From Alloalcanivorax xenomutans (GTDB lineage Bacteria > Pseudomonadota > Gammaproteobacteria > Pseudomonadales > Alcanivoracaceae), in the NCBI RefSeq assembly GCF_900217905.1, contig NZ_OBMO01000026.1, forward strand, positions 1 to 57,884: a DNA stretch of 57,884 bases, given 5' to 3'. Made by a program: the position numbers and the translations under genes. Under the pieces are notes generated by a model. It searched no databases. It saw only the letters and a program-made list of their open reading frames with translations, and was not told the DNA's origin. Below, piece after piece: positions 42,607 through 57,707 of this stretch (position 1 is the stretch's first letter; the number at the start of each line of letters is the position of its first letter).

Positions 42607-43890
42607 CTAACCGTCCATCCTGTTCTCTTCCCTCAACTCAGCAAGTTGGCGGGTAATCAATTCCCCAACACGACGGCTCACCCCGAAGTCTCCAGCAACC
42701 GAAGCGAAATCAGAAAGTACCTCCACGATTTCGGCAATATCCTGTCGTGCCTGCTCCCATTTGCCATAGCCCGCACGCTCCGCCAATGTCTGAATAGCTT
42801 TCAATGACGGACTTTTACCGAAGCCGGCATAGGCGGTAGCGTGCTCCTGGAACGGATGAGGGCTGAAGGTCACGTCATAGAAAGGCGCCGGCGCCCACTC
42901 GCCAGCATCATCCTGAAGAAAAGCCCAGTTCTTGCTGTGGTCATCCTGATTACAGGCGAACAGGTTGAACATGGCCCGGCGGAACTGAAGTTTACCCACC
43001 GCCGGCGACCGGCAAAGGTGACGGCTGGCCTTGATCAGGTCTTCGTAGTCCAGGCTCGGCGTCCGGAAATCCGCATCCAGCAGGCCGCAGGCACTGTGCA
43101 TGTGAAGGCGTCCGGCCTTTTGCGGGTGACTCACCCAGTCAAACCGCTTCACCCCAAGCCAGGCACGGGCCCCGCTTTGCTCCGGCGCATCGAACAGACG
43201 CCACTGCGGCGGCTGCAGTCCCAATTTTCCGGCCAGGTGCAGATAAGCGGCTTCACAAAGCCCCTCCTCATGGCCCAGTGGCAGATTCCGCGAGGTGAAC
43301 TTGACCAGCCAGGCCTCATCCCCGGGCCTTGCCATTGTGTGGCAGCGATTCGGCTCATCCGGGGAGATAAACAGCTGCGCCTTGGGCCTGGCACCGCCGG
43401 AACTTCCGGCAGCCACCAAATCCGCCAGCACATCCTCCGTCTGATCATCGAAAAAGGCCTGCGCCTCCATACCCAGAGTCGCCAGATCGATCTCCCCTGT
43501 CGATGCGACTTGATATTCAGAGGTGGGAGCAAATGACAAAGCGCCCATCCCAGAGGCACCAACAAATGCCAAACGATCCATGGCGCTGATCTGGGCAGGG
43601 AGAACCCCATGCTGGCGGAACACGCGATCCTGCAACAGAGCCCCCCAGCCGTCGGGCAGACTGTCCGCGAAAAGACCATGCAGACCCATGTGTGGTGTTC
43701 TGGGTGCCATCAGCAGTTCCGTGGTTGCCTTTAACCCAAACGGCGAAAGGTTGCCGAATCGCCCCAGATAGTCGGCATCGTACTGAAAGAACACACCCTG
43801 CCGGTTCTGCGCCAACGCCCCCACGGTTACCGCCTGTCCGGTTGCCAGCGTACGTGTCACCATCAGCTTGCGAACCGGTTTAAAGGTCAT
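42607..43890 (-). CDS. hipA: HipA-family serine/threonine kinase toxin
   Basis: A 427-residue toxin kinase; characterised HipA proteins phosphorylate glutamyl-tRNA synthetase and induce dormancy. It has an N-terminal HipA_N domain (G-L-H-G-L-F-A-D-S-L-P-D-G-W-G), then the kinase core with the Ser-containing P-loop-like G-S-S-G-G-A-R-P-K-A, catalytic region N-Q-D-D-H-S-K-N-W-A-F and the metal-binding Y-D-V-T-F-S-P. The conserved autophosphorylation loop is therefore intact. It overlaps hipB by 11 bases. Confidence 0.93.
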   Translation of the reverse strand: MTFKPVRKLMVTRTLATGQAVTVGALAQNRQGVFFQYDADYLGRFGNLSPFGLKATTELLMAPRTPHMGLHGLFADSLPDGWGALLQDRVFRQHGVLPAQISAMDRLAFVGASGMGALSFAPTSEYQVASTGEIDLATLGMEAQAFFDDQTEDVLADLVAAGSSGGARPKAQLFISPDEPNRCHTMARPGDEAWLVKFTSRNLPLGHEEGLCEAAYLHLAGKLGLQPPQWRLFDAPEQSGARAWLGVKRFDWVSHPQKAGRLHMHSACGLLDADFRTPSLDYEDLIKASRHLCRSPAVGKLQFRRAMFNLFACNQDDHSKNWAFLQDDAGEWAPAPFYDVTFSPHPFQEHATAYAGFGKSPSLKAIQTLAERAGYGKWEQARQDIAEIVEVLSDFASVAGDFGVSRRVGELITRQLAELREENRMDG

Positions 43891-44167
43891 CCTTCAATAC
43901 CTCATCGATACTGGAGGGCATCCCGGCTTCCCCAGGGGAATGACGGGTTAACGCATACAGGCGGCGCAGATCATCCAGGCTCTGCCAGAGAAACAGCAGC
44001 TGCCGGAACGAGATCTGCCCGGTGAGTTCGAATTTCTTGATGGTGGAGGCCGGCACTCCACTCCGCTCGGCCAGGGCATCGCGAGACAGCTTGGCCTGCT
44101 TGCGCAAACGCCGCAGGTGAGCAACAAAGGCTTGCTGTACATCGATGTCATCGAGCAAAGAGATCAT
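43880..44167 (-). CDS. hipB: HipB-like helix-turn-helix antitoxin
   Basis: A 95-residue XRE-type DNA-binding protein: L-R-R-L-R-K-Q-A-K-L-S-R-D-A-L-A-E-R-S-G-V-P-A-S-T-I-K-K-F-E is a textbook helix-turn-helix. It precedes hipA and would neutralise it and repress the operon. GGATA-N8-TCC at about 44182-44197 on the minus strand resembles a weak HipB operator. Confidence 0.9.
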   Translation of the reverse strand: MISLLDDIDVQQAFVAHLRRLRKQAKLSRDALAERSGVPASTIKKFELTGQISFRQLLFLWQSLDDLRRLYALTRHSPGEAGMPSSIDEVLKDDL

Positions 44168-44242
44168 CTTCCGCCAAAAATGGACATTACTGTATCCAAT
44201 GATGACACAATCAGAGAATAATAGATATTATGATAGCCAAAA

Positions 44243-44296
44243 GATTCGCCAGCAGGGCTGGCTCCCACAGCGGCTTAGGGTCGCCCTGCTGTGGAA
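44243..44296. repeat. REP-like element
   Basis: GATTCGCCAGCAGGGCTGGCTCCCACAGCGGC followed by a partial opposite arm (GCCCTGCTGTGGAAG) in the divergent hipB-marC gap. Confidence 0.75.
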
Positions 44297-44372
44297 GAGG
44301 TTTACTTGGCTTTGTCGCGCGGGTAACACCTACGCTACCAGAAATTTAGAATATCGAGTAACCGGAGCCGCT

Positions 44373-44987
44373 ATGGCCGAGCATGCCATCACCGTTTTCC
44401 TGGCCTTCTTCGCGATCATGAACCCGATCGCCAATACCGCGGTGTTCGCCGGTCTTGCCGGGGATAAGAGCAAGGCCGAGCAACGGCACATCGCCACCAA
44501 GGCGCTGATCATCACGTTCGTGATCATTCTGTTGTTCGCGGCGCTGGGCAAATCCATTTTCGATCTGTTCGGCATCACTCTGCCAGCGCTCAGGATCACC
44601 GGAGGAATATTGGTCTTCCTGGTTGGTTACCACATGCTTCAGGGCAGCAATTCCAAGCTCCATACGGAACCGGACGACGGCGACTCGGATATTGCCGTCT
44701 CCCCTCTGGCGGTCCCGCTGCTGGCGGGTCCAGGCACCATCGCCACGGCGATGAACTATTCCGCCTCCGGCGGCTGGGCGGCCATCATCATCACCTGCCT
44801 GGTCTTTTTGGCGCTTTGCCTGATCACCTTCATCTGTTTTTTGTTCAGCGCGCGAATCATCGCCGTCATCGGCCAGAACGGCCTGAGTATCGTGACGCGC
44901 CTGATGGGGCTGATCCTGGCGGTGATCGGCACACAAATGCTGATCGCCGGCATCCAGGGCGCGGTGCATTTCACCTCTTCCGGTTAA
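44373..44987 (+). CDS. MarC-family integral membrane protein
   Basis: 204 residues from the ATG at 44373, with GGAG 6 bases upstream; the frame runs further up but that part has no membrane or family features and contains a REP-like element. It has six hydrophobic segments typical of MarC/YchE-type proteins, with F-F-A-I-M-N-P-I-A-N, P-L-A-V-P-L-L-A-G-P-G-T-I-A and N-G-L-S-I-V-T-R-L-M-G-L-I-L. The family is often named a NAAT transporter, but the substrate is uncertain. Confidence 0.92.
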   Translation: MAEHAITVFLAFFAIMNPIANTAVFAGLAGDKSKAEQRHIATKALIITFVIILLFAALGKSIFDLFGITLPALRITGGILVFLVGYHMLQGSNSKLHTEPDDGDSDIAVSPLAVPLLAGPGTIATAMNYSASGGWAAIIITCLVFLALCLITFICFLFSARIIAVIGQNGLSIVTRLMGLILAVIGTQMLIAGIQGAVHFTSSG

Positions 44988-45014
44988 CTACCCAGGCCGC
45001 CGCGAGCGGCACGC

Positions 45015-46322
45015 TCAACCAAACCTTTCCGGCAGGAACAGAATCAGATCCGGCACACCCATCAACAGCAACAACACCACGGCGTCCATCATCAGGAACC
45101 AGAACACGCCCTTGAAGATGGCGCTGGTGGATACCAGGTCACCGACCACGCTCTTTATCACGAAGATGTTCATGCCCACCGGCGGCGTCACCATGCCCAC
45201 TTCCAACAGTTTGGTCAGCACCACGCCGAACCAGATCAGACTGAGGCCGGCGCTGTCGATGATCGGCAGGACGATGGGCAGGGTCAGCAGCATGGCGCCG
45301 ATAGGTTCCAGAAACATGCCCAGCAAAAGATAAACGCAGACAATAATCAGCAGAATCGCCACGGTGTCGGCGCCGGCATTCAGCACCAGCGAGGAAAGAT
45401 AGTCGCCGGCGCCGGATAAGGACAAGAAGCGGGTCAGCAGGCTGGCGCCCATGGCGATAATCAGCAGGGCGCCGGTGGTCAGCAGGGTTTCTTGTATCGC
45501 CGCGCGAAAGCGGCTCCAGGTCAGGGTACGTTTGCACAGCGCCACGATACAGGACAGCGCGGCGCCTACCGCACCGGCCTCCGTGGGCGTGAACAATCCG
45601 GCGAACATGCCACCGAAGATGCCCACCATGATCAGCAGGATCGGCCAGATATCCCACAGCGCCGCCACCTTTTCTTTCAGTGACACTCGCGAATCGGTAC
45701 GCGGCGCCAGCGACGGATCCAGCTTCACACGTAGCATCACCACCGCGATGTAACCCGCCACGGTAATCAGGCCGGCGGCGATCCCACCCAGAAACAATTT
45801 GCTGATCGACTGCTGAGCGATGATGCCGTAGAGGATCATGATGATCGATGGCGGTAGCAAAGCACCGACGGTGCCGGCGATGGAAACCGTGCTGGTCGCC
45901 AATCCCGAATTGTATTTCTGGTCAACCATCTCCGGCACGGCAACGCGCCCCATAGCGGCGGAGCAGGCCACGGAGGAACCGCATACCGCGGCAAAGCCGG
46001 TGGTTCCGAAAATGGAGGCCACCGCCAGGCCGCCCGGCACCGAGGACAGCCACAGCCGCGCGGCCCTGAATAATCCCTGAGTCAGTTGGGCGTGGAAACA
46101 GACGTAGCCGAGCAAAAGAAACATGGGTACCGAACTGAGCACCCAGTTGGCGGAGAACTGATAGGGGATCAGCCCCAACGATCCCCAGGCGATGCCCCAC
46201 CCCATCAGGTACCACAACCCACCGAAAGAGACGCCGATAAGCGCGATGCCCACCGGCATGCGCAAGGCGATCAGCGCGAACAACACCACCAGGCCACCAA
46301 GGCCAATCTGGGCTTCGGTCAT
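45015..46322 (-). CDS. dctM: TRAP transporter large permease, DctM family (cluster 2)
   Basis: A 435-residue membrane subunit with family motifs G-L-A-V-A-S-I-F-G-T-T-G-F-A-A-V-C-G-S-S, V-G-A-L-L-P-P-S-I-I, F-T-P-T-E-A-G-A-V-G-A-A and V-T-P-P-V-G-M-N-I-F-V. It has the same length as the DctM of cluster 1 and is clearly related to it. It is the last gene of the transporter/MaoC/CoA-transferase/HMG-CoA reductase cluster and overlaps dctQ by four bases. It probably imports the acid degraded by this cluster. Confidence 0.95.
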   Translation of the reverse strand: MTEAQIGLGGLVVLFALIALRMPVGIALIGVSFGGLWYLMGWGIAWGSLGLIPYQFSANWVLSSVPMFLLLGYVCFHAQLTQGLFRAARLWLSSVPGGLAVASIFGTTGFAAVCGSSVACSAAMGRVAVPEMVDQKYNSGLATSTVSIAGTVGALLPPSIIMILYGIIAQQSISKLFLGGIAAGLITVAGYIAVVMLRVKLDPSLAPRTDSRVSLKEKVAALWDIWPILLIMVGIFGGMFAGLFTPTEAGAVGAALSCIVALCKRTLTWSRFRAAIQETLLTTGALLIIAMGASLLTRFLSLSGAGDYLSSLVLNAGADTVAILLIIVCVYLLLGMFLEPIGAMLLTLPIVLPIIDSAGLSLIWFGVVLTKLLEVGMVTPPVGMNIFVIKSVVGDLVSTSAIFKGVFWFLMMDAVVLLLLMGVPDLILFLPERFG

Positions 46323-46897
46323 GCCGATTCCCCCGTGGCGCGGTGGGTACCATTCGGCCTCCGCGCGTCATCGGCGCTCCGCTGCTGCCCGGGTCCGTCG
46401 AACCCGGATTCGCCGCCGATGACATAGATCAGGAATTTGTAGAGCAGCGTCAGCACCATAAGCCCCAGCCCGATGGGCAGAACAAAATAGCCCGGCCAAA
46501 TGATGATGGAAGTGCCGCCTTCCACCAGGGCCGCTCCCATCTGATAACGGGACACCGCTTCTATTCCGGTTTTCACCGTCATGAAGCCGAGGATGATCGC
46601 CGACAGCAGGATCAGCCAATGGGCCAGATGGAACTGGAGCCGTTGTGGCAGCCGTTCGCTCACCACTTCCACGCTGATATGGGCGCCCAGCTTTTCCGCG
46701 TAAGCCAGGGGCAGAAAAGCGGCGACGATCATGTAGTAGTTGGACACATAGGTGATGGTGCCGGGAATCGGTGTTGAAAAAAGATAACGCAGCAATACGT
46801 CCAGGCTGATGTGGATCATCATCAAAGCAATGGCGAGCCCGCCCACCAGCGTCGTCATGTCCGTCACCCCGGAGAGATAACGCCCCAACCGATACAT
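46319..46897 (-). CDS. dctQ: TRAP transporter small permease, DctQ family (cluster 2)
   Basis: 192 residues from the ATG at 46897; longer upstream extensions overlap the MaoC gene and lack membrane character. It has four hydrophobic segments and the family segment P-G-T-I-T-Y-V-S-N-Y-Y-M-I-V. The C-terminal tail of about 30 residues is polar and unusually long. It partners with the overlapping DctM. Confidence 0.92.
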   Translation of the reverse strand: MYRLGRYLSGVTDMTTLVGGLAIALMMIHISLDVLLRYLFSTPIPGTITYVSNYYMIVAAFLPLAYAEKLGAHISVEVVSERLPQRLQFHLAHWLILLSAIILGFMTVKTGIEAVSRYQMGAALVEGGTSIIIWPGYFVLPIGLGLMVLTLLYKFLIYVIGGESGFDGPGQQRSADDARRPNGTHRATGESA

Positions 46898-46946
46898 AGT
46901 CTTTCCTCGAGAACCGGGAATACGAAGTGAAAGCCGGTGATACCTT

Positions 46947-47357
46947 TTAACGGCTGGGTTCGATGACCACGGTGGCGTTGCCCACGGTGGTGGCCTCCCC
47001 ACGTTGATTGGTGATCCTGAGATCCAGGGTAACGATGTCTCCATCAACGCCGGTCACTTCGCCGGTGGTGCTCAGCACGTCACCCACATAGGCGGCACGG
47101 CGATTGCTGTAAGCGAATGCTGTCAGGGTCCCGTTCCCGCCCAGCCACTCGTAGACCATTTGGGTCAGCCAGTCACCTTGCAGAGGACCATCGATCAACA
47201 GTTGCGGATGCCCTTCAGCTTCCTGGGTGTAGGGCAGATCATAGTGAATGCGGTGAGGGTTCCAGATGGCGGCGTTGTACAGAAAAAGCTGAACGGTATC
47301 CGCATGCCAGTTCCGCCCGGTTAATTTTTCGCCGGCCTCAATACGCTTTTTCATCAT
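46947..47357 (-). CDS. MaoC-like hydratase, C-terminal-type half
   Basis: 136 residues from the ATG at 47357 (GAGGTGA upstream); a GTG at 47366 overlaps the preceding stop by four bases and is the alternative. It is a hot-dog-fold enzyme with the motif Y-N-A-A-I-W-N-P-H-R-I-H-Y-D, close to the catalytic segment of mesaconyl-CoA hydratase/HTD2-type proteins (F-N-x-H-R-I-H-Y-D) as opposed to the classic D-x-N-P-x-H. It is followed by P-Q-L-L-I-D-G-P-L-Q. It probably pairs with the next gene to hydrate or dehydrate a branched dicarboxylyl-CoA. Confidence 0.8.
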   Translation of the reverse strand: MMKKRIEAGEKLTGRNWHADTVQLFLYNAAIWNPHRIHYDLPYTQEAEGHPQLLIDGPLQGDWLTQMVYEWLGGNGTLTAFAYSNRRAAYVGDVLSTTGEVTGVDGDIVTLDLRITNQRGEATTVGNATVVIEPSR

Positions 47358-47362
47358 CGTTG

Positions 47363-47818
47363 TCACCTCGCAATCCGGGTCAGACGTTCGGTAACCACCG
47401 GTTCGCCATCACGGGTTTCAAATCGGTTTTCGAATACCAGGAAAAGCAACGGCCCCTCGGCCCCGGTCTTCTCAAACACCTCAACGAATTTCTGCCGGCA
47501 AACCAGGGTATCCCCGGCGTAAACCTTGCGGTGTATCTGGTATTCACTACCGCCGGCCATGATGCGGTTAAGCGGCAATGGCGGCATCAGGCCGCTGTCC
47601 GGTTGGCGGCCGTCCGGCAACAGCCGGTCCAGCGGTACCACTGGCATCATTGCCGCGAACAGGTAAAGCAGTGGGGCCTCGTCACCACTGAGGTAACGCT
47701 CAAGCCGCTGGCCTGTGGCCACGGCGTACTTCTTCAGGTCACCACGGGAGATTTCAAACTCAAAAGGCGGAAGCTCGGCACCGACATGGTTCTTGAGTTC
47801 CTCGGTAAGCACAGTCAT
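47363..47818 (-). CDS. FAS1-type/MaoC N-terminal dehydratase half
   Basis: A 151-residue hot-dog-fold protein of the FAS1-like dehydratase region type. It has F-E-I-S-R-G-D-L-K-K-Y-A-V-A-T-G at the start, L-N-R-I-M-A-G-G-S-E-Y-Q-I-H-R-K-V-Y-A-G-D-T-L in the middle. It lacks the catalytic D/H motif of the partner gene, as expected for the non-catalytic half of a two-part hydratase. In mesaconyl-CoA hydratase these two halves are one polypeptide. Its stop overlaps the next gene. Confidence 0.8.
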   Translation of the reverse strand: MTVLTEELKNHVGAELPPFEFEISRGDLKKYAVATGQRLERYLSGDEAPLLYLFAAMMPVVPLDRLLPDGRQPDSGLMPPLPLNRIMAGGSEYQIHRKVYAGDTLVCRQKFVEVFEKTGAEGPLLFLVFENRFETRDGEPVVTERLTRIAR

Positions 47819-47872
47819 GACGCACCTCGGTCAGGTTGGTGTAAACCGGGCGGCCAGGCCGCCCGTATCGGA

Positions 47873-49012
47873 TCAGAGGCCGTGCTTGGAGACGTCCACT
47901 TTGGAGAAGATCTCATTCCAGTACAGGTCGACGAGCTGTTGCTCACTGTCCACGTCCTGGACCAGACCGGCCCACTTCTCCAATAGTTCGCGGAAATCCG
48001 CGATCATCTCCTGACCTCGACTGACGTTGTAACGTTTTTGATAGTCCGTGGCGATGAAATCCATGTCCTTCTCGATAAAAGCATTGGTCTTCGCCACCAG
48101 GTCCGGGTCGGCGTGATGAATCTTGACGCCGCGTTGTTCCGCTTCCGACAGGATACGGTCTTCATGCTGGTGGTAGATCCAGGGAATACCGGCGGTGAAC
48201 GCGCTGGCGGCACGCAGCATCCGCGTTCTCTGTTGCGGAGAAAGCGACTTCCAGGTGTCGGCGTTGATATTGGTACCGGCTACCGGCATCGGGCCACCGG
48301 GCACATCCATGTTGATGTCGGTCACCACATCCGCGAGCCCGAAATTATGAATCTCCGGTGAAGCCAATACGATGCAACCCACGACGCCTTGACTCAACGC
48401 CTCATACATTTCATTGGCGGACATGGTCACCGGAGAGGCACCCACCGCCTCGGTCCAGCGTGACCAGTTAGCGGCCCCGACTCTAAGACGCATGCCACTG
48501 AGGTCCGCCGCACTTTCCACTGGCCGGTTGCATACCAATCCGTAGGAAGAGCCGCCGGTGCTCCCGGTGTACACCTGATTCTGTTTGGCGAACTCCTGGT
48601 TGCATTCCGGACAGTGGAAAAAAGTAAACTCGGAGAGCGCGCCCATGAAGACCATGCCTTCCTTGCCGCGCACCTTGTCACCCAGCAGACCCAGCAACAT
48701 GGACGATTCCACCGCCACGTTGCTGTGCGGAAATTCGGCGGGGAAATAGGACGTCAGCACAAAGCCGATATCCGCCATGCCGTCCCGCAGACCACCGGAC
48801 GTCTCGGCGAAATTCAGCAAGGACATGGGAAAGACACGGACCTTCAAATCACCTTCGGTCAGTTCACTGACGGATTCCGCATACTGCTTTGCCACGTCCA
48901 CGACAAAAGAACTGGGAGGATGGCCAATGGCGTAACGCAGGGTTCTGGCCTCGACGGAGAGCGCGGCCACCCCACTGAGCATGGCCAGCGCCACAATCAC
49001 TAAGCGTTTCAT
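47873..49012 (-). CDS. dctP: TRAP transporter solute-binding protein, DctP family (cluster 2)
   Basis: A periplasmic receptor of 379 residues with a signal peptide (M-K-R-L-V-I-V-A-L-A-M-L-S-G-V-A-A-L-S-V, then E-A). The TRAP receptor arginine is probably in G-M-R-L-R-V-G-A. Like the cluster 1 receptor it has a C-P-E-C pair (about residue 134) and matching single cysteines in L-V-C-N-R and V-G-C-I-V. It lies between the CoA-transferase and the MaoC pair, which implies that transporter and enzymes are expressed together. Confidence 0.92.
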   Translation of the reverse strand: MKRLVIVALAMLSGVAALSVEARTLRYAIGHPPSSFVVDVAKQYAESVSELTEGDLKVRVFPMSLLNFAETSGGLRDGMADIGFVLTSYFPAEFPHSNVAVESSMLLGLLGDKVRGKEGMVFMGALSEFTFFHCPECNQEFAKQNQVYTGSTGGSSYGLVCNRPVESAADLSGMRLRVGAANWSRWTEAVGASPVTMSANEMYEALSQGVVGCIVLASPEIHNFGLADVVTDINMDVPGGPMPVAGTNINADTWKSLSPQQRTRMLRAASAFTAGIPWIYHQHEDRILSEAEQRGVKIHHADPDLVAKTNAFIEKDMDFIATDYQKRYNVSRGQEMIADFRELLEKWAGLVQDVDSEQQLVDLYWNEIFSKVDVSKHGL

Positions 49013-49054
49013 AGTGTGGTTTCCTTTGTTATTTAATAATTAATGGGAACGGCG

Positions 49055-50284
49055 TCAGATCACGCCGTTCCGTTTGAGGGATTCGAATTCGTCATCATCC
49101 TTGCCCAGCCAGTCCCGATAAATCCGCTCGTTGTGTTCACCTACTTCCGGTGCCGCCGCGTTCATTTCTCGGGTGCCGCCGGACAGCTTCACCGGATTGC
49201 CGAACACCTCGAAATCCACGCCCCGGTATTGCACCGGGATCACCATGTCGCGTAACCGCACATGAGGGTCCGCCACCACTTCGTCAATGCTCTTGATCGG
49301 TGACAACGGGAAACGGGCGCCGGTCATTTCTTCCAGTTCCGCCTTGGTATGACGGCCGCACCATTGTTCCACCAGCGGTTTCACCCGACGCTCATAGACG
49401 TCCTGATCAAAGCGCTTGGCCATGGTGTTGATTTCCGGGTCATCGAGGAGGTGCTCGTCACCGAAGACAATGCAGGCCTCGCGCCAGAATTTGTCGGTGT
49501 AGGCGCCAAAGAACACATAGCCGTCCTTACAGGCGTATCGGCCATAGGGCTTGACGAAAGGATGCCCATTACCTTCGGGCACCGTGATCTTGCCGGATGC
49601 GGTGTAGGTCACCAGCGCGTTCTCGGTGAGCGAGATAATGGAATCCTGCTGGGAAATATCCACGCGCTGACCGATGCCGGTTTGTTCCGCCTGACGCAGG
49701 GCCCCCAAAGTGCCGATGGCGCCGTACAGGGCCGCGCTCAGATCACCCAGCACGGTGCCCACCCGCATCGGTTCTTCCACCGTACCGTTCATGGACCACA
49801 GTCCGCCGGTGGCCTGGGCGCTGCTATCAAACGCCGGGCGCGGCGAGTTCGGACCGGTCTGCCCAAAGCCGCTGATGCAGGTGAGAATAATGGCGGGATT
49901 GGTCTCCGCCAGAACGTCGTAGCCCAATCCCAGTTTATCCAGTGTGCCGGGACGGAAGTTCTCGATGACGATGTGGGCCCTGGCCACCATTTGCAGAAAG
50001 GTCTCACGGCCTTCCGCTTTCTTCAGATCCAGACTCACCGCCATTTTGTTTCTGTTGTACTGAGCGAAGAAACCGCTGATCGCCGCGCCATCCTGATCCA
50101 TCAAAGGCGGAAATTCCCTCGTCAGGTCCGGGTCCTGGGGGTGCTCGATCTTGATCACCGTCGCCCCCATGTCAGCCAGTAACATGGCGCAATAGGGACC
50201 GGCCACGACCCGGGTCAGATCGAGGATGACAATGCCCTTGAGCGGACCTTCTGATGCAACGGGAATATCGGTTTGATGGGTCAT
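49055..50284 (-). CDS. Family III CoA-transferase (cluster 2; SUGCT-like role possible)
   Basis: 409 residues from the ATG at 50284 (GGAGG 6 bases upstream). It has V-I-L-D-L-T-R-V-V-A-G-P-Y-C and G-A-T-V-I-K-I-E-H-P at the N-terminus, the catalytic Asp in P-A-F-D-S-S-A-Q-A-T-G-G, and F-R-P-G-T-L-D-K-L-G-L-G-Y. Family III includes succinyl-CoA:hydroxymethylglutarate/glutarate CoA-transferase; with an HMG-CoA reductase next door, transfer of CoA to or from HMG or a methylglutaconate-like acid is a reasonable guess. Confidence 0.92.
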   Translation of the reverse strand: MTHQTDIPVASEGPLKGIVILDLTRVVAGPYCAMLLADMGATVIKIEHPQDPDLTREFPPLMDQDGAAISGFFAQYNRNKMAVSLDLKKAEGRETFLQMVARAHIVIENFRPGTLDKLGLGYDVLAETNPAIILTCISGFGQTGPNSPRPAFDSSAQATGGLWSMNGTVEEPMRVGTVLGDLSAALYGAIGTLGALRQAEQTGIGQRVDISQQDSIISLTENALVTYTASGKITVPEGNGHPFVKPYGRYACKDGYVFFGAYTDKFWREACIVFGDEHLLDDPEINTMAKRFDQDVYERRVKPLVEQWCGRHTKAELEEMTGARFPLSPIKSIDEVVADPHVRLRDMVIPVQYRGVDFEVFGNPVKLSGGTREMNAAAPEVGEHNERIYRDWLGKDDDEFESLKRNGVI

Positions 50285-50370
50285 GGGACCTCCTCGTCTT
50301 GTTGTCATTCTGATGCTCGCCGGCGGCGCCGCTCATCGGCGCCACCAGCGAGCTGATCATAGACGCTGCC

Positions 50371-51660
50371 TCACTCGCTTTGTCGCTTCTCTCTCAGCAA
50401 GGCTTCCGCGTGATCGGCGCCCACATCCCGGGCGATGACCATCCGCTCCACCACATAAGCAACCTCCTCGCCACGTGCGCCGGCCAACAGCGCTATATTG
50501 CGAGCGTGCAGAGCCATATGGCCGCGCTGAATGCCTTCCGTCGCCAGCGCGCGCAGCGCTCCCAGGTTCTGTGCCAGCCCCACCGCCACCGCCACTTCCG
50601 CCAACTCCTGGGCACTGGATACGCCCAGAATCTTCAACGCCAGCCGTGCCAGCGGGTGCGTTTTGGTGGCGCCGCCCACCAACCCCACTGGCATTGGCAT
50701 TTCAATGGTGCCCACCAGGGCGCCCTCGCGGTCTTTTTCCCAGGTGGTGAGGGAGCCGTAATGGCCATCGCGGCAGGCATAGGCATGGGCGCCCGCTTCC
50801 ACCGCGCGCCAGTCGTTACCGGTGGCGACGATCAAAGGGTCGATGCCATTCATGATGCCTTTGTTGTGGGTGGCCGCCCGGTACGGATCCACGGCGGCGA
50901 ACGCGTAGGCATCGATAATACGCTCGATTACGTCCTCACCTTTGTAGTCCGCGGTGTCCAGATGCTCCGGTGCAATGCGCACCTGGGCACGGGAGAGCCG
51001 CAGATCGGCGAGGTTGGAGAGAATCCGCAGCCGCACCGTGCCACCGGTGATCTCTTCCATCAGCGGCGCCACGGCCTCGGCCATGGTGTTCACGGTATTG
51101 GCTCCCATGGCGTCCCGCACATCGACCAACAGATGGGCCACCACCATCGGCCCGCGCGGACTGTCGGCGAAGGTATGGATGTCCAGATCACGGCAGCCGC
51201 CACCGAGCTGATTAAGGAGCTGATCCTTGCTGTTGGCCAGATCGAGGATGCGCTGCTTGTGACGCAGCAGGCTGAGACGGGCGTTGACCGGATCGGAAAC
51301 ACCGATGATCTGGATCTGTGCGCGCATCAATGGGGTACTGGAGGATGTCAGAAAGCCGCCCGCCGGACGTGCCAGCTTTGCCATGAAGGACGCCGCCGCC
51401 ACCACCGAGGGCTCTTCCACGGCCATGGGCACCAGCACCTCCTTGCCGTTAACGAGAAAGTTTCCGGCAATCGCCAAGGGCAGCTCGAACTTGGCGATGA
51501 CGTTCTCAATCATGCCATCGGCGATTTCCAACGGCAGAGCTCCGACGTTGCGCAGCAGATCCAGCTCATCATCGGATAGGGCCAACTGGGATTGCAGATG
51601 ATCCAATCGCTCGGCGGGGGAAAGATTACGAAAACCGGGAAGCAGGGAGCTGTAGCTCAC
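50371..51660 (-). CDS. mvaA: Degradative class II HMG-CoA reductase (NAD-dependent)
   Basis: 429 residues from a GTG at 51660 (AGAGG upstream). The four catalytic residues of the Pseudomonas mevalonii enzyme fall at the same numbers: Glu83 (V-E-E-P-S-V-V), Lys267 (T-H-N-K-G-I-M-N-G), Asp283 (A-T-G-N-D-W-R) and His381 (Q-R-G-H-M-A-L-H). Asp146 (S-K-D-Q-L-L-N), the residue that selects NAD over NADP in that enzyme, is also conserved. In P. mevalonii the enzyme oxidises mevalonate to HMG-CoA. No HMG-CoA lyase gene is in the window. It is divergent from a MocR-type regulator. Confidence 0.95.
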
Positions 51661-51750
51661 GGGTCACCTCTGTGACGTCGTTGTTGTTAGGTGGGCGGCG
51701 TTTGGTTGACGGAGTCGGATACGCCGGATTGACCGTTACGATAGCTTCAC

Positions 51751-51773
51751 CTGTACCCATCAAAAAGGTACAG
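51751..51773. promoter_or_regulatory. Putative MocR-regulator operator
   Basis: CTGTACC (51751-51757) and GGTACAG (51767-51773) are perfect inverted arms around a 9-base A-rich spacer. Two direct copies of GTTACG flank it (51735-51740 and 51773-51778). The site lies in the divergent gap, 91 bases before the HMG-CoA reductase start and 51 before the regulator start. Confidence 0.55.
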
Positions 51774-51823
51774 TTACGGCAAACAGTCTCCCCCAGCCCC
51801 GTACAACAACAACGGAATTTCCC

Positions 51824-53215
51824 GTGGCCCTTCCCCTGCACCGCCAAACGCTGGCCCAGCGGGTCGCCGCCAGCATCGCCGAGCAGATCGCCGAGGGCGC
51901 GCTGCGCCAGGGCGACAAGCTCCCCTCCCTGCGCGAGTACACTCGTCTGCATGGCCATTCCAAGAACACCGTGATCACCGCCTACGAGTACCTCGCCGCG
52001 GAAGGGCTTATCGAGGCCAGACATGGCAAGGGCTTTTTTGTCTGCGCGCCACCGGAGAACAGTGACGACACCGGCCCCGAACCACCGCCTTACGCACGCG
52101 CTCTGGACACCATCTGGATGATGCGTCAGCAGTTCGTGCGCGAGCCTGGACATTCCCATTTGGGCGAAGGGTTTCCGCCGGTGGAATGGCTGATGGATAT
52201 GCGCCTGGACAAGTTCAGCCGCCAAGTGGTGCGCAGCGGCGTGGCCACACTGTTCCGTTACGGCGACCGACTGGGCAATATCAATTTGCGACAGCAACTG
52301 GTCAGAAAACTGGCCGGCTACGGCATCAGCACCACCATAGCGCAGATCGCCACGACCTTCGGCGCCAACCACGGCATGGACTTGGTGATCCGGCGGTTCG
52401 TCAAACCCGGAGATGCGGTGCTGGTGGAAAGTCCGGGTTATTACCCGCTGTTCGGCAAGTTGCAGCTTCAGGGCGCGCGCATGCTGCCGGTTACCCGCCA
52501 GGTGGACGGGCCCGACACCGAACAGCTGGCCCGGCTGCTGGCCAGAGAGAAGCCGCGCTTGTTCTTCATGCAGTCCGCCGGCCATAACCCCACCGGCACC
52601 GATCTTTCCACCGCCAAGGCGGAACGGATTCTGGCGCTGGCCAGACGCCATAATCTGATCGTGGTGGAAAACGATGCCATGGCGGATTTCAAACTCAGTT
52701 CCTGCACAAAACTGGCGGCCTTGGATCAACTCAAACGCACCCTTTATATCGGCAGCTTCTCCAAACCGGTTTCAGCGGCACTGCGGGTCGGTTTCATCGC
52801 CGGCGAGGAAGGGCTGATCAGTGAACTGGCGGACGTGAAAATGCTGTTGCACACCAGCGGTGCCGAGTATTCGGAAAGGCTGGTCAATATTATCCTGCGC
52901 GAAGGTCACTACCTGAGACATCTGGCGCGTCTGCAGAAACGGCTCAGGGAAGCCACCGAGCTAGGTTTGGCGGTACTCGATGAGCTCGGCGCGGAAGTGT
53001 TCCACCGCCCGGATCAGAGTCTCTATGTCTGGGCCCGCTTCCCCGGTATCGACGATGCCAATGAACTGACCCGGCGCTGTCTGGACAAAGGGGTGATGCT
53101 GGCACCGGGCTCGATCTTTTCCGTCGACAGAACAAAAATCGTGCCCTGGACCCGCCTCAACGTGGCTTACCTGGACGACCCGGCGTTCCGGGCCGCCCTG
53201 CTCGACGGCCTGTAG
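51824..53215 (+). CDS. MocR-type (GntR-HTH plus aminotransferase-fold) regulator
   Basis: 463 residues from a GTG at 51824. The N-terminal winged helix (residues 5-70) has G-D-K-L-P-S-L-R-E-Y and S-K-N-T-V-I-T-A-Y. A linker leads to a fold-type I aminotransferase domain, with the PLP lysine in G-S-F-S-K-P-V-S and the R-V-G-F-I segment after it. Members such as EnuR, GabR and PdxR use PLP and an amino compound as effectors. It lies between HMG-CoA reductase (divergent) and a DoeB-like gene (convergent), so its target could be either. Confidence 0.9.
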   Translation: MALPLHRQTLAQRVAASIAEQIAEGALRQGDKLPSLREYTRLHGHSKNTVITAYEYLAAEGLIEARHGKGFFVCAPPENSDDTGPEPPPYARALDTIWMMRQQFVREPGHSHLGEGFPPVEWLMDMRLDKFSRQVVRSGVATLFRYGDRLGNINLRQQLVRKLAGYGISTTIAQIATTFGANHGMDLVIRRFVKPGDAVLVESPGYYPLFGKLQLQGARMLPVTRQVDGPDTEQLARLLAREKPRLFFMQSAGHNPTGTDLSTAKAERILALARRHNLIVVENDAMADFKLSSCTKLAALDQLKRTLYIGSFSKPVSAALRVGFIAGEEGLISELADVKMLLHTSGAEYSERLVNIILREGHYLRHLARLQKRLREATELGLAVLDELGAEVFHRPDQSLYVWARFPGIDDANELTRRCLDKGVMLAPGSIFSVDRTKIVPWTRLNVAYLDDPAFRAALLDGL

Positions 53216-53248
53216 TCGCTAAAACCGCACGACGTTCCTTCACGCCGG

Positions 53249-54265
53249 TCAATCGAAGTTCTTCAGCGCCACCGCCAGCACCGCGAAGGTATCCCCCATG
53301 GCAACTCTGGCGGGGTGGCGGCGGCCGATCAGAATGCCGCTCACTGGCGCCCGGTATTCCACCGGCGCGGCACCGGTGCGCTCCATACTGTAGATTCTGG
53401 CGATCAGGTCACCGGCGCGGATTTCGTCTCCGAGGCCGACGCAAAACTCCAGCAATCCGGCGTTTTCGCTTTGCAGATAGTGGTCGTTATCGGGGATCTC
53501 CAGCATTCTGCTGGCGGATACCGGCGGATGCGGTTCTCCAGCCAGGACACCGGCGTAGCGAAGGACGTTCTCGACACCCCGCTCCGCCAGCGCCACGCTC
53601 TCCGGCGTGGACGTGCCGCCACCGCGCAGTTCGGTGCTGATAAAGACCTTGCCCTGATTCTCGACCACGGTGTCGAACAGCGCCGCGCCCTCCAGTTCCG
53701 ACATCAACAGCGTGTTGGGCGCGCCAAAGGCAAGAGCGCCTTCCAGACAACGGCGGGCCAGATCCTGGTCCGGCAACCGGTGGGTGGCGGCGAACGGCAG
53801 CAAATCCAGGGTGCGGCCGCCGGAATGAATATCCAGCACCACGTCGCTCAAAGGCACCAGATAACGGGTGAAGTAATCGGCGATACGCTCGGTCAGCGTG
53901 CCGCACGGGTCACCGGGGAAGGCTCGATTGAGATTGCCTTTATCGATGGGTGAGGTCCGGGTGCCATTCAGCGCCGCCGGATGGTTCATCATCGGCACGA
54001 TGATGACACGGCCGGCGATGTCCCTGGCTCGCAGCCGGTTGGCCAGTTTGATCAGGGCGGTGATCCCCTCGTATTCGTCGCCGTGATTACCTCCGGTGAG
54101 CAGCACCGTCGGCCCAGCGCCATTGCGCACCACGGCGATGGGGATCATCAGGCAGCCCCAGGCGGAATCATCGTGGGAGTGCGGCAGCTTGAGAAATCCA
54201 TGCTGCACCCCATCGCGGTGATAGTCCACGGTAGTGCTGATCGGGCTGTCTGGCAGATGCGACAT
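53249..54265 (-). CDS. DoeB-like N-acetyl-diaminobutyrate deacetylase (AspA/AstE family)
   Basis: 338 residues from the ATG at 54265 (GGAG 6 bases upstream). It is a zinc-dependent aspartoacylase/succinylglutamate desuccinylase fold, with the zinc motif G-G-N-H-G-D-E-Y-E-G, the central R-T-S-P-I-D-K-G-N-L-N-R and the second zinc His in L-D-I-H-S-G-G. The N-terminal I-S-T-T-V-D-Y-H-R-D-G-V-Q-H-G-F-L-K-L-P closely resembles DoeB of ectoine degradation. The partner doeA is not in the window, so the true substrate is open. Confidence 0.85.
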   Translation of the reverse strand: MSHLPDSPISTTVDYHRDGVQHGFLKLPHSHDDSAWGCLMIPIAVVRNGAGPTVLLTGGNHGDEYEGITALIKLANRLRARDIAGRVIIVPMMNHPAALNGTRTSPIDKGNLNRAFPGDPCGTLTERIADYFTRYLVPLSDVVLDIHSGGRTLDLLPFAATHRLPDQDLARRCLEGALAFGAPNTLLMSELEGAALFDTVVENQGKVFISTELRGGGTSTPESVALAERGVENVLRYAGVLAGEPHPPVSASRMLEIPDNDHYLQSENAGLLEFCVGLGDEIRAGDLIARIYSMERTGAAPVEYRAPVSGILIGRRHPARVAMGDTFAVLAVALKNFD

Positions 54266-54318
54266 AGGTTCTCCTCGTCCCGGGCGCCCATGACGGGCCA
54301 CCGGCTTTGCTCCTATAA

Positions 54319-55032
<714 letters not shown>

Positions 55033-55082
55033 AATCCCCGCCCTTATGTCTGGTCGATTGAGACCAACCGGAGGAGAACACC

Positions 55083-55346
55083 GTGGCCCGTGTAACCGTA
55101 GAAGATTGCCTGGAAAAGCTGGACAACCGCTTTGAGCTGGTACTGGTATCCAGCCGGCGCGCCCGTCAGCTGCAGACCGGCGGCAAAGAGCCGCGGGTGG
55201 CCTGGGAGAACGACAAGCCCACCGTGGTGGCCCTGCGCGAAATCGCCGATGGTCACGTGACCGGCGAAAGCCTGGATGCCGCCGCCCTGGAACACGACAG
55301 CGAGGTCGATGACCTGGCGCTGCTGACCCGTTCCTTCGGCGAATAA
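55083..55346 (+). CDS. rpoZ: RNA polymerase omega subunit
   Basis: An 87-residue small RNA polymerase subunit that helps beta-prime folding and forms part of a ppGpp-binding site. It begins [10 protein letters not shown] and includes [16 protein letters not shown] and [10 protein letters not shown], the family consensus. It lies just upstream of spoT. Confidence 0.97.
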
Positions 55347-55357
55347 CGCCGCTGCTC

Positions 55358-55392
55358 CGGCCGGGCACAGCCCCGGCCGCGCCTTTCTCTTT
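55358..55392 (+). terminator. Intrinsic terminator after rpoZ
   Basis: CGGCCGGG and CCCGGCCG form an 8-bp stem around a 6-base loop, followed by CGCCTTTCTCTTT. This should end much of the gmk-rpoZ transcript, leaving spoT with its own promoter in the 200 bases that follow. Confidence 0.7.
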
Positions 55393-55598
55393 GCCCCCGG
55401 TCTTTGCCCGCTTTTTCATAGTCTCCGCCTATCAAGGCAAAAAGCTTTGCCTTTTCAATGACTCACGGCAATAACGTAGACAAATTGTCGCGGCAAACCT
55501 TAAGCTAGGACTGTATACCGCATACCGCGATGATCAGCGCGGATGCATGACGCGTCCTTTGCATACATGGATTCGCCCTGGCGGCGTGATGAGAGCCC

Positions 55599-57707
55599 TT
55601 GTCCACCATCCATAACCTGGAAAAACGTTTGCGCAGCTACCTGACGGACGAGCAGATCGCCCCGGTGGTGCGCGCCTACTATTTCGCCGAGACCGCCCAC
55701 GAGGGCCAGTATCGACGGACCGGGGACCCATACATCACGCATCCGCTGGCGGTGGCCAACATTCTCACCGATATGCACATGGACCACGCCTCTCTGATGG
55801 CGGCCATGCTGCACGATGTGATCGAGGATACCGGCGTCTCCAAGGAACAGCTGGCGACGGAATTCAGCGAGGAGGTGGCGGAACTGGTCGACGGCGTCTC
55901 GAAAATCGCCCAGATCAAGTTCGAGTCCAAAGCGGAGCAGCAGGCGGAAAATCTGCGCAAGATGATTCTGGCGATGACGCGGGACATCCGCGTGATCCTG
56001 GTGAAACTCGCCGACCGTCTGCACAACATGCGCACGCTGCATGTGATGAACCCCGACAAACGCCGCCGTATCGCCACCGAAACCCTGGAGATCTACGCGC
56101 CAATCGCCTTCCGCCTGGGCATGTACAACATGCGCGTGGAGTACGAGGACCTGGCCTTCCACGCCATCCATCCGATGCGGGCCCGGCTGATCGGTCAGGC
56201 GGTGCGCTCCGCCCGGGGCAACCGCAAGGAGATCCTCTCGTCGATCAAGACCAGCATCGAACACTGCCTGCAGCAGGAAGGCATCGAGGCCCGGGTGCTG
56301 GGGCGTGAGAAGCACCTTTACAGCATCTACAACAAGATGAAAGAGCAGCACAAACCGTTCTCGGAAATCATGGACGTGTTTGGCTTCCGCATCATCGTCG
56401 ACCGCGTGGACACCTGCTACCGGGTGCTCGGCGCGGTGCACAACTACTTCATTCCCATCCCGGGCCGGTTCAAGGACTACGTGGCCATTCCCAAGGCCAA
56501 CGGCTACCAGTCCCTGCATACCACTCTGAAGGCCCACTCCGGGATTCCGCTGGAAATCCAGATCCGCACCGAGGAAATGGAAGCGATGGCCAACAACGGC
56601 ATCGCCGCCCACTGGCTGTACAAGACCGAGGAGAAACCTGGCTCGCCGACCCACACCCGGGCACAATCCTGGATGCAGCGGCTGCTGGAGATGCAGCAGA
56701 AAGCCGGTAACTCGATGGAGTTCATCGAGAACGTCAAAGTGGACCTTTTCCCCGACGAAGCCTACGTGTTCACGCCCAAAGGCGACATCAAGGAGCTCCC
56801 CGCCGGCGCCACTCCGGTGGACTTCGCCTACGCCGTGCACACCAAGGTGGGCAACCGTTGCGTGGCGGCCCGGGTGGACGGCAAGCTGGCGGCGCTGTCC
56901 ACGCCGCTGGAGTCCGGGCAAACGGTGAAGATCATCACCGCCCCCAACGCCACCCCCAATCCGGCCTGGCTCAACTTCGTCGTCACCGGCAAGGCCCGCT
57001 CCAACATTCGCCACTTCCTCAAGCAGCAGCGGCGGGAAGACGCCCGGGAACTGGGACAACGCCTGTTGGACAAGGCCCTGGCGGGCTACGAGAGCAGCCT
57101 TGAGCATCTGCCGGAAACGGTGATCCGCGCCGAGCTGGACAGCAACGATCAGCACAGCCTGGACGAGCTGCTGGAAGACATCGGCATGGGCAACCGGCTG
57201 GCGCCGCTGGTGGCCCGCAAGATGATGGGCAACCATGGTGAGGCCCGGCAGGAAGAGGACGACCGGCGGCCGCTGGCGATCCGTGGCAGCGAAGGCCTGA
57301 TGGTGACCTACGCCAAGTGCTGCTACCCGCTACCCGGCGATACCATCCTCGGGCATCTCAGTGCCGGACGGGGCATCGTGGTGCATCGCGATACCTGCAA
57401 GAATCTGCTGGCGGAGATGCGCAACGCGCCGGAAAAATGCATCGCTCTGAGCTGGGAGCGGGAGGCGGAGCAAGAATTCACCGCTGGCCTGCGCATTGAA
57501 CTGGTCAACAAGCGCGGCGTCCTCGCCACTCTGGCCAACAGCGTCACCGAGCAGGGCTCCAACATCGATACCATCGACATGTCCGACAAGGACCCCACGC
57601 TATCCCTTCTCAATGTCACTCTCACGGTGAAGGACCGCATCCACCTGGCGCGCATTATTAAACGCCTGCGTGTGCTGGATAACATCGTTCGCATTCAGCG
57701 TCTGTAA
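55599..57707 (+). CDS. spoT: Bifunctional (p)ppGpp synthetase/hydrolase SpoT
   Basis: A stringent-response enzyme of 702 residues from a TTG at 55599; an in-frame stop just upstream leaves no ATG near the expected start, and the TTG gives a canonical N-terminus. The HD hydrolase domain is intact (H-E-G-Q-Y-R-R-T-G-D-P-Y; M-L-H-D-V-I-E-D-T). The synthetase domain has R-F-K-D-Y-V-A-I-P-K, the R-x-K-D form of bifunctional enzymes. A TGS domain (F-T-P-K-G-D-I-K-E-L-P) and a C-terminal ACT domain follow. It is the last gene before the terminal repeat. Confidence 0.96.
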   Translation: MSTIHNLEKRLRSYLTDEQIAPVVRAYYFAETAHEGQYRRTGDPYITHPLAVANILTDMHMDHASLMAAMLHDVIEDTGVSKEQLATEFSEEVAELVDGVSKIAQIKFESKAEQQAENLRKMILAMTRDIRVILVKLADRLHNMRTLHVMNPDKRRRIATETLEIYAPIAFRLGMYNMRVEYEDLAFHAIHPMRARLIGQAVRSARGNRKEILSSIKTSIEHCLQQEGIEARVLGREKHLYSIYNKMKEQHKPFSEIMDVFGFRIIVDRVDTCYRVLGAVHNYFIPIPGRFKDYVAIPKANGYQSLHTTLKAHSGIPLEIQIRTEEMEAMANNGIAAHWLYKTEEKPGSPTHTRAQSWMQRLLEMQQKAGNSMEFIENVKVDLFPDEAYVFTPKGDIKELPAGATPVDFAYAVHTKVGNRCVAARVDGKLAALSTPLESGQTVKIITAPNATPNPAWLNFVVTGKARSNIRHFLKQQRREDARELGQRLLDKALAGYESSLEHLPETVIRAELDSNDQHSLDELLEDIGMGNRLAPLVARKMMGNHGEARQEEDDRRPLAIRGSEGLMVTYAKCCYPLPGDTILGHLSAGRGIVVHRDTCKNLLAEMRNAPEKCIALSWEREAEQEFTAGLRIELVNKRGVLATLANSVTEQGSNIDTIDMSDKDPTLSLLNVTLTVKDRIHLARIIKRLRVLDNIVRIQRL

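What the first reader, a model, noticed from the sequence alone, without database searches (positions are those of the whole stretch)
45015..54265. Possible undescribed catabolic system built around a degradative HMG-CoA reductase
One minus-strand cluster joins a TRAP importer, two MaoC-fold hydratase halves, a family III CoA-transferase and a class II HMG-CoA reductase, with a divergent MocR regulator. The reductase has Glu83, Lys267, Asp283, His381 and the NAD-selecting Asp146 at the same numbers as the mevalonate-oxidising P. mevalonii enzyme. Known mevalonate use there relies on mvaA and mvaB (HMG-CoA lyase). Here the lyase is absent, and hydratase plus CoA-transferase take its place. Inference: mevalonate is imported and oxidised to HMG-CoA, and the MaoC pair and CoA-transferase link HMG-CoA to 3-methylglutaconyl-CoA, free HMG or a related acid.
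Basis: partly seen in the sequence, partly recalled or inferred. Interest (0 to 1): 0.85.

Follow-up and report, generated by a model that had tools for sequence, protein, structure and literature searches.

The report
Mevalonate-eating gene cluster with extra branch
A marine-type bacterium carries a gene set for feeding on mevalonate plus a two-step side branch that probably turns a related acid, quite possibly one found in fungal iron carriers, into mevalonate; the core is known but the branch appears undescribed.

Summary
The genes are there as described, on a whole contig of an Alloalcanivorax-type genome. The reductase is MvaA-type. The idea that hydratase and CoA-transferase replace HMG-CoA lyase fails: the genome has a lyase elsewhere; sister species keep one in this cluster beside both enzymes; cluster lyase is as common with the module (17 of 31 loci) as without (19 of 38). 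What is new is a conserved CoA-transferase + hydratase module. Searched for on its own, the CoA-transferase ortholog was found in 11 genomes, within 2.4 kb of the reductase in 11 of 11, each time with a hydratase: the split MaoC pair (2) or an unrelated crotonase (9). Best reading: it activates and hydrates anhydromevalonate to mevalonate, fungal SidI/SidH logic reversed. Two of the 11 have siderophore uptake genes next door, one with an esterase resembling triacetylfusarinine C esterase; in the other nine, the window's among them, none was found. Substrate unproven. Main rival: 3-methylglutaconate to HMG-CoA.

The parts
50371..51660 (-). mvaA: class II degradative HMG-CoA reductase (GTG start)
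   Evidence: PF00368 379 bits, TIGR00532 428 bits over cut-off 260; 1qax 724 bits; catalytic residues
49055..50308 (-). family III CoA-transferase (CaiB type), proposed anhydromevalonate CoA-transferase
   Evidence: PF02515 387 bits; Asp161 invariant in 8 orthologs; the seven NCBIfam models matched are all below cut-off
47873..49012 (-). TRAP solute-binding protein DctP
   Evidence: PF03480 93 bits; no real similarity to the DctP of another HMGR cluster, L065
47363..47818 (-). MaoC-fold hydratase half A (FAS1-like dehydratase domain)
   Evidence: PF13452 67 bits; N half of itaconyl-CoA hydratase; fold match 8khg (model pLDDT 65)
46947..47366 (-). MaoC-fold hydratase half B (overlaps half A by 4 bases)
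   Evidence: C half of itaconyl-CoA hydratase 8khg, E 6e-10; fold match ChsH1-ChsH2 (model pLDDT 78); no Pfam
46319..46897 (-). TRAP small permease DctQ (likely start 46897; ORF opens at 47047)
   Evidence: PF04290 72 bits; length as in sister species, start
45015..46322 (-). TRAP large permease DctM
   Evidence: PF06808 264 bits; TIGR00786 269 bits, cut-off 268
51824..53215 (+). divergent MocR/GntR-aminotransferase regulator; SFSK motif with the PLP lysine kept (motif recalled)
   Evidence: PF00392 and PF00155, sequence; a relative was annotated in 52 of 63 HMGR loci (one search count on the annotation)

Best explanation
A mevalonate-catabolic cluster with a feeder branch. TRAP imports a C6 hydroxy acid. 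Mevalonate is oxidised by the HMGR (with CoA and 2 NAD+) to HMG-CoA, which is split by the chromosomal HMG-CoA lyase; the cluster's own lyase was lost in this clade. The family III CoA-transferase and the split MaoC hydratase act before the reductase: they convert anhydromevalonate (5-hydroxy-3-methyl-2-pentenoate, the acyl arm of fungal hydroxamate siderophores) to anhydromevalonyl-CoA, then mevalonyl-CoA; the CoA is passed on to the next anhydromevalonate, freeing mevalonate for the reductase, as in CaiB/CaiD carnitine chemistry. Shown: gene content, conservation, tie of CoA-transferase and hydratase to the reductase, hydratase exchange. Inferred: substrates, direction, CoA recycling, siderophore source.
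For: CoA-transferase ortholog searched on its own: 11 distinct genomes (730-781 bits for whole genes, 441 for the split G1393 copy). In some searches, which listed hits down to E 1e-110, the next best score 371 bits (G690, G1093) and have no HMGR match in the stretch fetched. The reductase is within 2.4 kb in 11 of 11; a hydratase is in the same gene run in 11 of 11 (crotonase directly next to it in 9; MaoC pair in 2, with DctP between); a lyase is within 10 kb in only 6 of 11. In the 398-genome sample the 5 CoA-transferase genomes are all among the 15 HMGR genomes. The CoA-transferase tree needs one change between MaoC and crotonase partners; on the HMGR tree starred branches force at least 8 gains or losses of the module. 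Both hydratases fit making a tertiary 3-hydroxy-3-methylacyl-CoA: the MaoC pair matches itaconyl-CoA hydratase; the crotonases keep both catalytic Glu in 10 of 10 (positions recalled). G309: FhuB over its cut-off, FhuC-, FhuD-like, FoxA/FhuA-type receptor and an esterase matching TAFC esterase 6gud, EstB and bacterial siderophore esterases next to HMGR-CaiB-ECH-MvaB. G1378: siderophore-interacting protein, TonB receptor and AraC regulator beside the cluster. [quoted passage not shown]
Against: No biochemical evidence for any substrate. With the G309 siderophore genes as queries nothing matched the window, and a TonB receptor was found in 2 of the 30 module loci searched (G309 itself, G1378) against 0 of 38 without the module: not significant by itself, and the query would show only FhuA/FoxA-like receptors. 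In G309 the operons converge, so the neighbourhood could be chance. Family III models nearest by score act on dicarboxylates (mesaconate, glutarate), which fits the 3-methylglutaconate rival; SUGCT is fourth among solved chains. No hydroxamate hydrolase in the window cluster. The lactonase-fused permease of four module clusters also occurs, by similarity, in one cluster without the module (L073), and LivK_70-type proteins lie near 3 of 38 clusters without it.
Confidence: 0.48

Rival explanations
1. Two branches meeting at HMG-CoA: mevalonate is oxidised to HMG-CoA, and free 3-methylglutaconate (or HMG) is activated by the CoA-transferase and, if unsaturated, hydrated by MaoC pair or crotonase to HMG-CoA; a lyase in or outside the cluster finishes both.
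For: Closest models act on dicarboxylates: succinyl-CoA:mesaconate (296 bits, cut-off 700) and succinate-glutarate (250, cut-off 750); succinate-HMG CoA-transferase 9br6 is among the solved relatives (185 bits); a lyase is near in 17 of 31 module loci.
Against: The shared enzyme would be the lyase, yet the lyase is within 10 kb in only 6 of 11 CoA-transferase-first genomes while the reductase is within 2.4 kb in 11 of 11. It gives no reason for siderophore genes or lactonase-fused permeases.
Confidence: 0.25
2. One reading: hydratase and CoA-transferase replace the lyase as the outlet of HMG-CoA.
For: The window cluster and 13 other module loci have no lyase within 10 kb or to the end of the stretch held.
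Against: Lyase and module coexist in 17 of 31 loci; a lyase is missing as often without the module (19 of 38); lyase over cut-off somewhere in 10 of 10 genomes checked. Turning HMG-CoA into a free acid would be a dead end (inference).
Confidence: 0.05
3. The module handles another mevalonate relative: the other enantiomer (by dehydration and rehydration), an ester or a lactone-derived acid.
For: Same gene logic; permease fused to an SMP-30/gluconolactonase-like domain in L136, L139, L141 and by similarity L076.
Against: No known abundant natural source of the other enantiomer (recalled); lactonase-type fusion also present without the module (L073).
Confidence: 0.12
4. Itaconate/mesaconate (citramalyl-CoA) type pathway beside an unrelated reductase.
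For: MaoC pair resembles itaconyl-CoA hydratase; CoA-transferase resembles mesaconate CoA-transferase.
Against: No citramalyl-CoA lyase among the cluster genes; CoA-transferase near HMGR in 11 of 11.
Confidence: 0.04

Closest known systems
Pseudomonas mevalonii mvaAB mevalonate catabolism
   Same: Same reductase family with the same residues at the catalytic positions; three Pseudomonas loci here have reductase then lyase without the module. P. mevalonii uses mevalonate as sole carbon source by oxidising it to HMG-CoA with NAD+ (PMC13412983, passages)
   Different: Lyase not in the window cluster; added CoA-transferase, hydratase pair, TRAP importer and MocR regulator
Fungal SidI/SidH anhydromevalonyl-CoA branch (siderophore biosynthesis)
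   Same: Mevalonate, mevalonyl-CoA and anhydromevalonyl-CoA joined by CoA activation and (de)hydration, if the best explanation holds
   Different: Opposite direction; CoA-transferase in place of a ligase; bacterial and catabolic
Carnitine CaiB/CaiD
   Same: Family III CoA-transferase with a hydratase that can recycle CoA between unsaturated and hydroxylated acid (recalled)
   Different: CoA-transferase scores 144 bits to the L-carnitine CoA-transferase model, cut-off 413
Itaconyl-CoA hydratase (Ich, 8khg)
   Same: Its two halves match MaoC A and B
   Different: Split into two genes; no citramalyl-CoA lyase in the cluster
Succinate-hydroxymethylglutarate CoA-transferase (SUGCT, 9br6)
   Same: Family III; acts on HMG (by its name)
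   Different: 184-185 bits, fourth and fifth among solved chains

Membership tests
Degradative class II HMG-CoA reductase (TIGR00532) | Score over the curated cut-off | tested here: met
   428 bits against 260
Degradative class II HMG-CoA reductase (TIGR00532) | Catalytic Glu83, Lys267, Asp283, His381 and coenzyme-selecting Asp146 (roles recalled) | tested here: met
   same numbering as 1qax
Degradative class II HMG-CoA reductase (TIGR00532) | NAD(H) use in the oxidative direction | not testable with these tools
   enzyme assay needed; the R. pomeroyi enzyme mainly uses NADH (PMC12292504, abstract and passages)
mvaAB mevalonate-catabolic operon | HMG-CoA lyase gene next to the reductase | tested here: not met
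   no lyase match in the window; present in six sister species
mvaAB mevalonate-catabolic operon | HMG-CoA lyase encoded in the genome | tested here: met
   G000:C34, 308 bits, cut-off 246
mvaAB mevalonate-catabolic operon | Growth on mevalonate | not testable with these tools
   -
Family III CoA-transferase | PF02515 over cut-off and conserved catalytic Asp | tested here: met
   387 bits; Asp161 invariant in A4 (role recalled)
Carnitine CaiB | Equivalog score | tested here: not met
   144 bits, cut-off 413
Succinyl-CoA:mesaconate CoA-transferase | Equivalog score | tested here: not met
   296 bits, cut-off 700
Itaconate Ict-Ich-Ccl pathway | Citramalyl-CoA lyase in the cluster | tested here: not met
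   no such family among cluster genes
Fungal-type SidI/SidH branch | Acyl-CoA ligase for mevalonate | tested here: not met
   no AMP-binding enzyme among the window cluster genes
Heteromeric MaoC hydratase | Two adjacent hotdog-fold chains | tested here: met
   (models of modest confidence); complex formation itself not tested

The most novel reading that the evidence does not exclude
A bacterial catabolic branch that feeds on the anhydromevalonyl arms of fungal hydroxamate siderophores (fusarinine, triacetylfusarinine C, coprogen type): released arms are taken up, converted through anhydromevalonyl-CoA and mevalonyl-CoA to mevalonate and burned through HMG-CoA, in some alphaproteobacteria next to a siderophore importer and esterase.
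Probability: 0.35. Interest if true: 0.78.

Novelty: new variant of a known kind. Interest (0 to 1): 0.6.

Why it matters
Bacterial mevalonate catabolism is described as reductase plus lyase (recalled). A CoA-transferase that lies near the reductase in every genome where I found it, with a hydratase that has been exchanged for an unrelated one, marks a real reaction pair for which I found no description. If the substrate is anhydromevalonate, it would be a route by which bacteria use the carbon of fungal siderophores, with a genetic marker for it; if it is 3-methylglutaconate, a bacterial entry for that acid. Either is directly testable with few enzymes.

Tried and rejected
Lyase replacement: rejected. 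Itaconate/mesaconate pathway: no citramalyl-CoA lyase, equivalog scores far below cut-off. Ligase + crotonase beside a Variovorax HMGR locus (L048; AMP-binding and ECH) as a SidI/SidH analogue: not used, the crotonase is only 36% like the module's and a hydroxycinnamate module is as likely (recalled). Nearest MaoC-pair paralogs: orthologs of half A (265-307 bits) in 4 of 283 genomes of the order, all four with HMGR; the next 17 score 106-136 bits; 10 of these 17 were fetched, none showed HMGR, and in the one annotated (L172) a thiolase, an acyl-CoA ligase and a Rieske-type oxygenase lie beside it. TRAP ligand from solved binding proteins: best match 72 bits to 4p56, too distant to name a ligand. 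No Rfam family in 44000-55500, no tRNA in the window.

Papers. One search (five phrases for mevalonate catabolism) gave 6 papers, none on a bacterial pathway by title or abstract start; passages of one, PMC13412983, only restate P. mevalonii. One search gave 25 papers with (anhydro)mevalonyl-CoA; by title and abstract start 24 are on fungi or fungal metabolites and one (PMC9854754) on precursor supply in bacteria, fungi and plants. One search gave none; the listings (20 of 54; 12 of 61; 5) showed no bacterial route for anhydromevalonate. Bacterial breakdown of other siderophores is known: PMC11800396 (passages) treats amphibactin proteolysis and mentions bacterial amidases on desferrioxamines; 'mevalon' does not occur in its text. 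The library lacks most subscription journals, so this is weak evidence of novelty.

Limits. CoA-transferase searches scored at most four candidates per genome; two listed only hits under E 1e-130; one search was aimed at relatives of G309. Lyase counts use one MvaB query (37% identity or more, within 10 kb); 13 of the 32 lyase-less stretches rechecked have a flank under 9 kb, and rows hold near-copies (L047/L133, L070/L138, sister Alloalcanivorax), so p values ignore relatedness. The HMGR tree warns of long branches that meet (L085 with L112 and others). Greedy ORF calling missed the lyase in G005 and G007 and one MaoC half in G005; the tblastn counts replace them.
Full report
Observation. The window is a whole 57,884-base contig (C15) of a 4.35 Mb genome. 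Its reductase is 98% identical to that of Alloalcanivorax balearicus, which has the same cluster and flanks. The minus-strand cluster is HMGR 50371-51660, family III CoA-transferase 49055-50308, DctP 47873-49012, MaoC half A 47363-47818, MaoC half B 46947-47366, DctQ (likely 46319-46897) and DctM 45015-46322, with a divergent MocR-type regulator at 51824-53215. Gaps are 42-62 bases between the first four genes, with 4-base overlaps between the MaoC halves and between DctQ and DctM, as in an operon. The reductase scores 428 bits to the degradative HMGR model (cut-off 260), aligns residue 1-426 to 1-426 of the P. mevalonii enzyme (73% identity over residues 1-206) and has all five named residues.

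MaoC halves. Half A matches the N half and half B the C half of itaconyl-CoA hydratase 8huc/8khg. Predicted models are modest (pLDDT 65 for A and 78 for B, from 4-row alignments), but fold search gives itaconyl-CoA hydratase for A and the heteromeric hydratase ChsH1-ChsH2 and R-hydratases for B. So this is a split, two-chain hotdog hydratase related to one that adds water to make the tertiary alcohol of citramalyl-CoA (that chemistry is recalled).

Lyase. The genome has five PF00682 hits, one of which is an HMG-CoA lyase (308 bits to NF004283, cut-off 246; its GGCPFAPGATGN stretch is recalled as the lyase signature). With it as query, 45 of 46 genomes of the family have a match at E 1e-30 or better. 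In the genus, 10 of 13 genomes have the reductase; all 10 have CoA-transferase and both MaoC halves; six (G003-G007, G010) also have an MvaB-like lyase directly after the reductase, four (G000, G001, G002, G012) do not. In Pseudomonas matsuisoli and P. nabeulensis the order is HMGR, lyase, CoA-transferase, MaoC A, MaoC B. Over 69 loci, a lyase lies within 10 kb of the reductase in 17 of 31 with the CoA-transferase and 19 of 38 without (Fisher p 0.81, near-copies included). Ten of ten CoA-transferase genomes checked have a lyase over cut-off somewhere. The window clade most simply lost a cluster lyase and can use the chromosomal one; nothing replaced it.

The module. The CoA-transferase has orthologs at 54-60% identity in more distant clusters (Peristeroidobacter, Tardiphaga, Roseovarius, Xanthobacter, Aquamicrobium), where the next gene is a crotonase instead of the MaoC pair. 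To avoid the bias of starting from the reductase I searched for the CoA-transferase itself: 398 genomes of the window's phylum gave 5; 369 of its class gave only the window genome at ortholog level; 385 of G333's class (Alphaproteobacteria, since its cluster equals that of Tardiphaga robiniae) gave 3; 49 relatives of G309 gave 5, G309 itself and a split copy included. Distinct genomes: 11. Scores are 730-781 bits (441 for the split copy); the next hits fall to 371 bits (G690, G1093; no HMGR in the stretches fetched). The reductase is within 2.4 kb in 11 of 11. A hydratase is in the same run in 11 of 11: a crotonase directly next to the CoA-transferase in 9, the MaoC pair with DctP between in 2. 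A lyase is within 10 kb in 6 of 11. In the 398-genome sample 15 have the reductase, and the 5 with the CoA-transferase are among them. A plasmid of the actinobacterium Rhodococcus pseudokoreensis has the same set, with hydantoinase/oxoprolinase genes; there the CoA-transferase is 6.7 kb from the reductase.

Evolution. The CoA-transferase tree separates MaoC partners as one clade, one change in all (outgroups too distant to root it). On the HMGR tree the module was gained or lost at least 8 times by the starred branches, 9 by parsimony, and it occurs with a deep PucR-regulated HMGR lineage (L112, L115, L137; a long branch) whose CoA-transferases group with those of ordinary alphaproteobacterial clusters. 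The crotonases keep both Glu positions of enoyl-CoA hydratases in 10 of 10 (positions recalled). So CoA-transferase plus hydratase is a unit tied to the reductase.

What it does. A CoA-transferase makes a CoA ester from an acid; a hydratase turns a 2-enoyl-CoA into a 3-hydroxyacyl-CoA. Two products fit the reductase: mevalonyl-CoA (from anhydromevalonate), or HMG-CoA (from 3-methylglutaconate). The first needs the reductase next; the second needs the lyase. The link is to the reductase (11 of 11) rather than the lyase (6 of 11), which favours anhydromevalonate. In fungi anhydromevalonyl-CoA is made from mevalonate by CoA ligation (SidI) and dehydration (SidH) (PMC3709128, passages); the bacterial module would run this backwards with a CoA-transferase that can pass CoA from mevalonyl-CoA to the next anhydromevalonate. 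Importers differ with the module. Of 38 loci without it, 19 have TctA, 7 another TRAP (DctM_F14 type), 5 a Liv-type binding protein F34, 3 a LivK_70-type protein and 1 the ribose-type permease with lactonase-like domain. Of 25 annotated loci with it, 12 have the window's DctM type, 7 LivK_70, 4 the lactonase-type fusion and 2 TctA (one locus can hold two kinds; Pfam for the fusion in L136, L139, L141).

Siderophore link. In G309 the genes after HMGR, CoA-transferase, crotonase and lyase, converging with them, are FhuB (728 bits, cut-off 554), FhuD-like (180, cut-off 252), FhuC-like (345, cut-off 433), an esterase whose solved relatives are BES, fungal siderophore esterases including triacetylfusarinine C esterase 6gud and EstB, and enterobactin esterases, and a receptor nearest CntO/FoxA and FhuA. 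In G1378 a siderophore-interacting FAD protein, a TonB receptor and an AraC regulator stand beside the cluster. Against this: with the G309 genes as queries, a TonB receptor was found in 2 of 30 module loci searched and 0 of 38 without the module, the esterase only in G309, and nothing in the window. I read it as suggestive, not as proof.

Verdict. The reductase cluster is a known kind (mevalonate catabolism). The conserved CoA-transferase/hydratase branch, with an exchange of the hydratase, was not found described in the papers I could search and is the real finding.

Noticed in passing
53249-54355 (-): DoeB, N-acetyl-diaminobutanoate deacetylase of ectoine breakdown (457 bits, cut-off 403), convergent with MocR; in four sister species it lies at the other end of the cluster (L128-L131), as if the cluster moved or flipped beside it.
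   Followed up: partly
51824-53215 (+) and relatives: A MocR regulator with the PLP lysine motif kept; a relative stands by the reductase in 52 of 63 annotated loci, with or without the module. Such regulators usually sense amino compounds (recalled), which neither mevalonate nor anhydromevalonate is. Unexplained.
   Followed up: partly
L136:13016-15133, L139:2423-4546, L141:14368-16491: ABC permease fused to a strictosidine-synthase-like/SMP-30 gluconolactonase domain beside HMGR-CaiB-ECH: perhaps uptake and opening of mevalonolactone or its anhydro form.
   Followed up: partly
L195 (NZ_CP070614.1 258963-269888): Rhodococcus plasmid cluster with hydantoinase/oxoprolinase A and B genes directly before CoA-transferase and crotonase; might open a cyclic amide such as a diketopiperazine.
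   Followed up: no
L193:13763-14416 (G1393; NZ_CP104990.1 about 543220-544436): CoA-transferase gene split and unannotated between reductase and crotonase in Rhizobium sp. CC-CFT758, with an ABC importer and amidase-family genes nearby and an iron ABC permease about 20 kb away.
   Followed up: no
54577-55419 and 55500-57236 (-): Two ORFs of 280 and 578 aa next to DoeB without Pfam or NCBIfam match, with relatives in sister species.
   Followed up: no
42607-43890 (-): HipA-like kinase gene (PF07804, PF13657).
   Followed up: no
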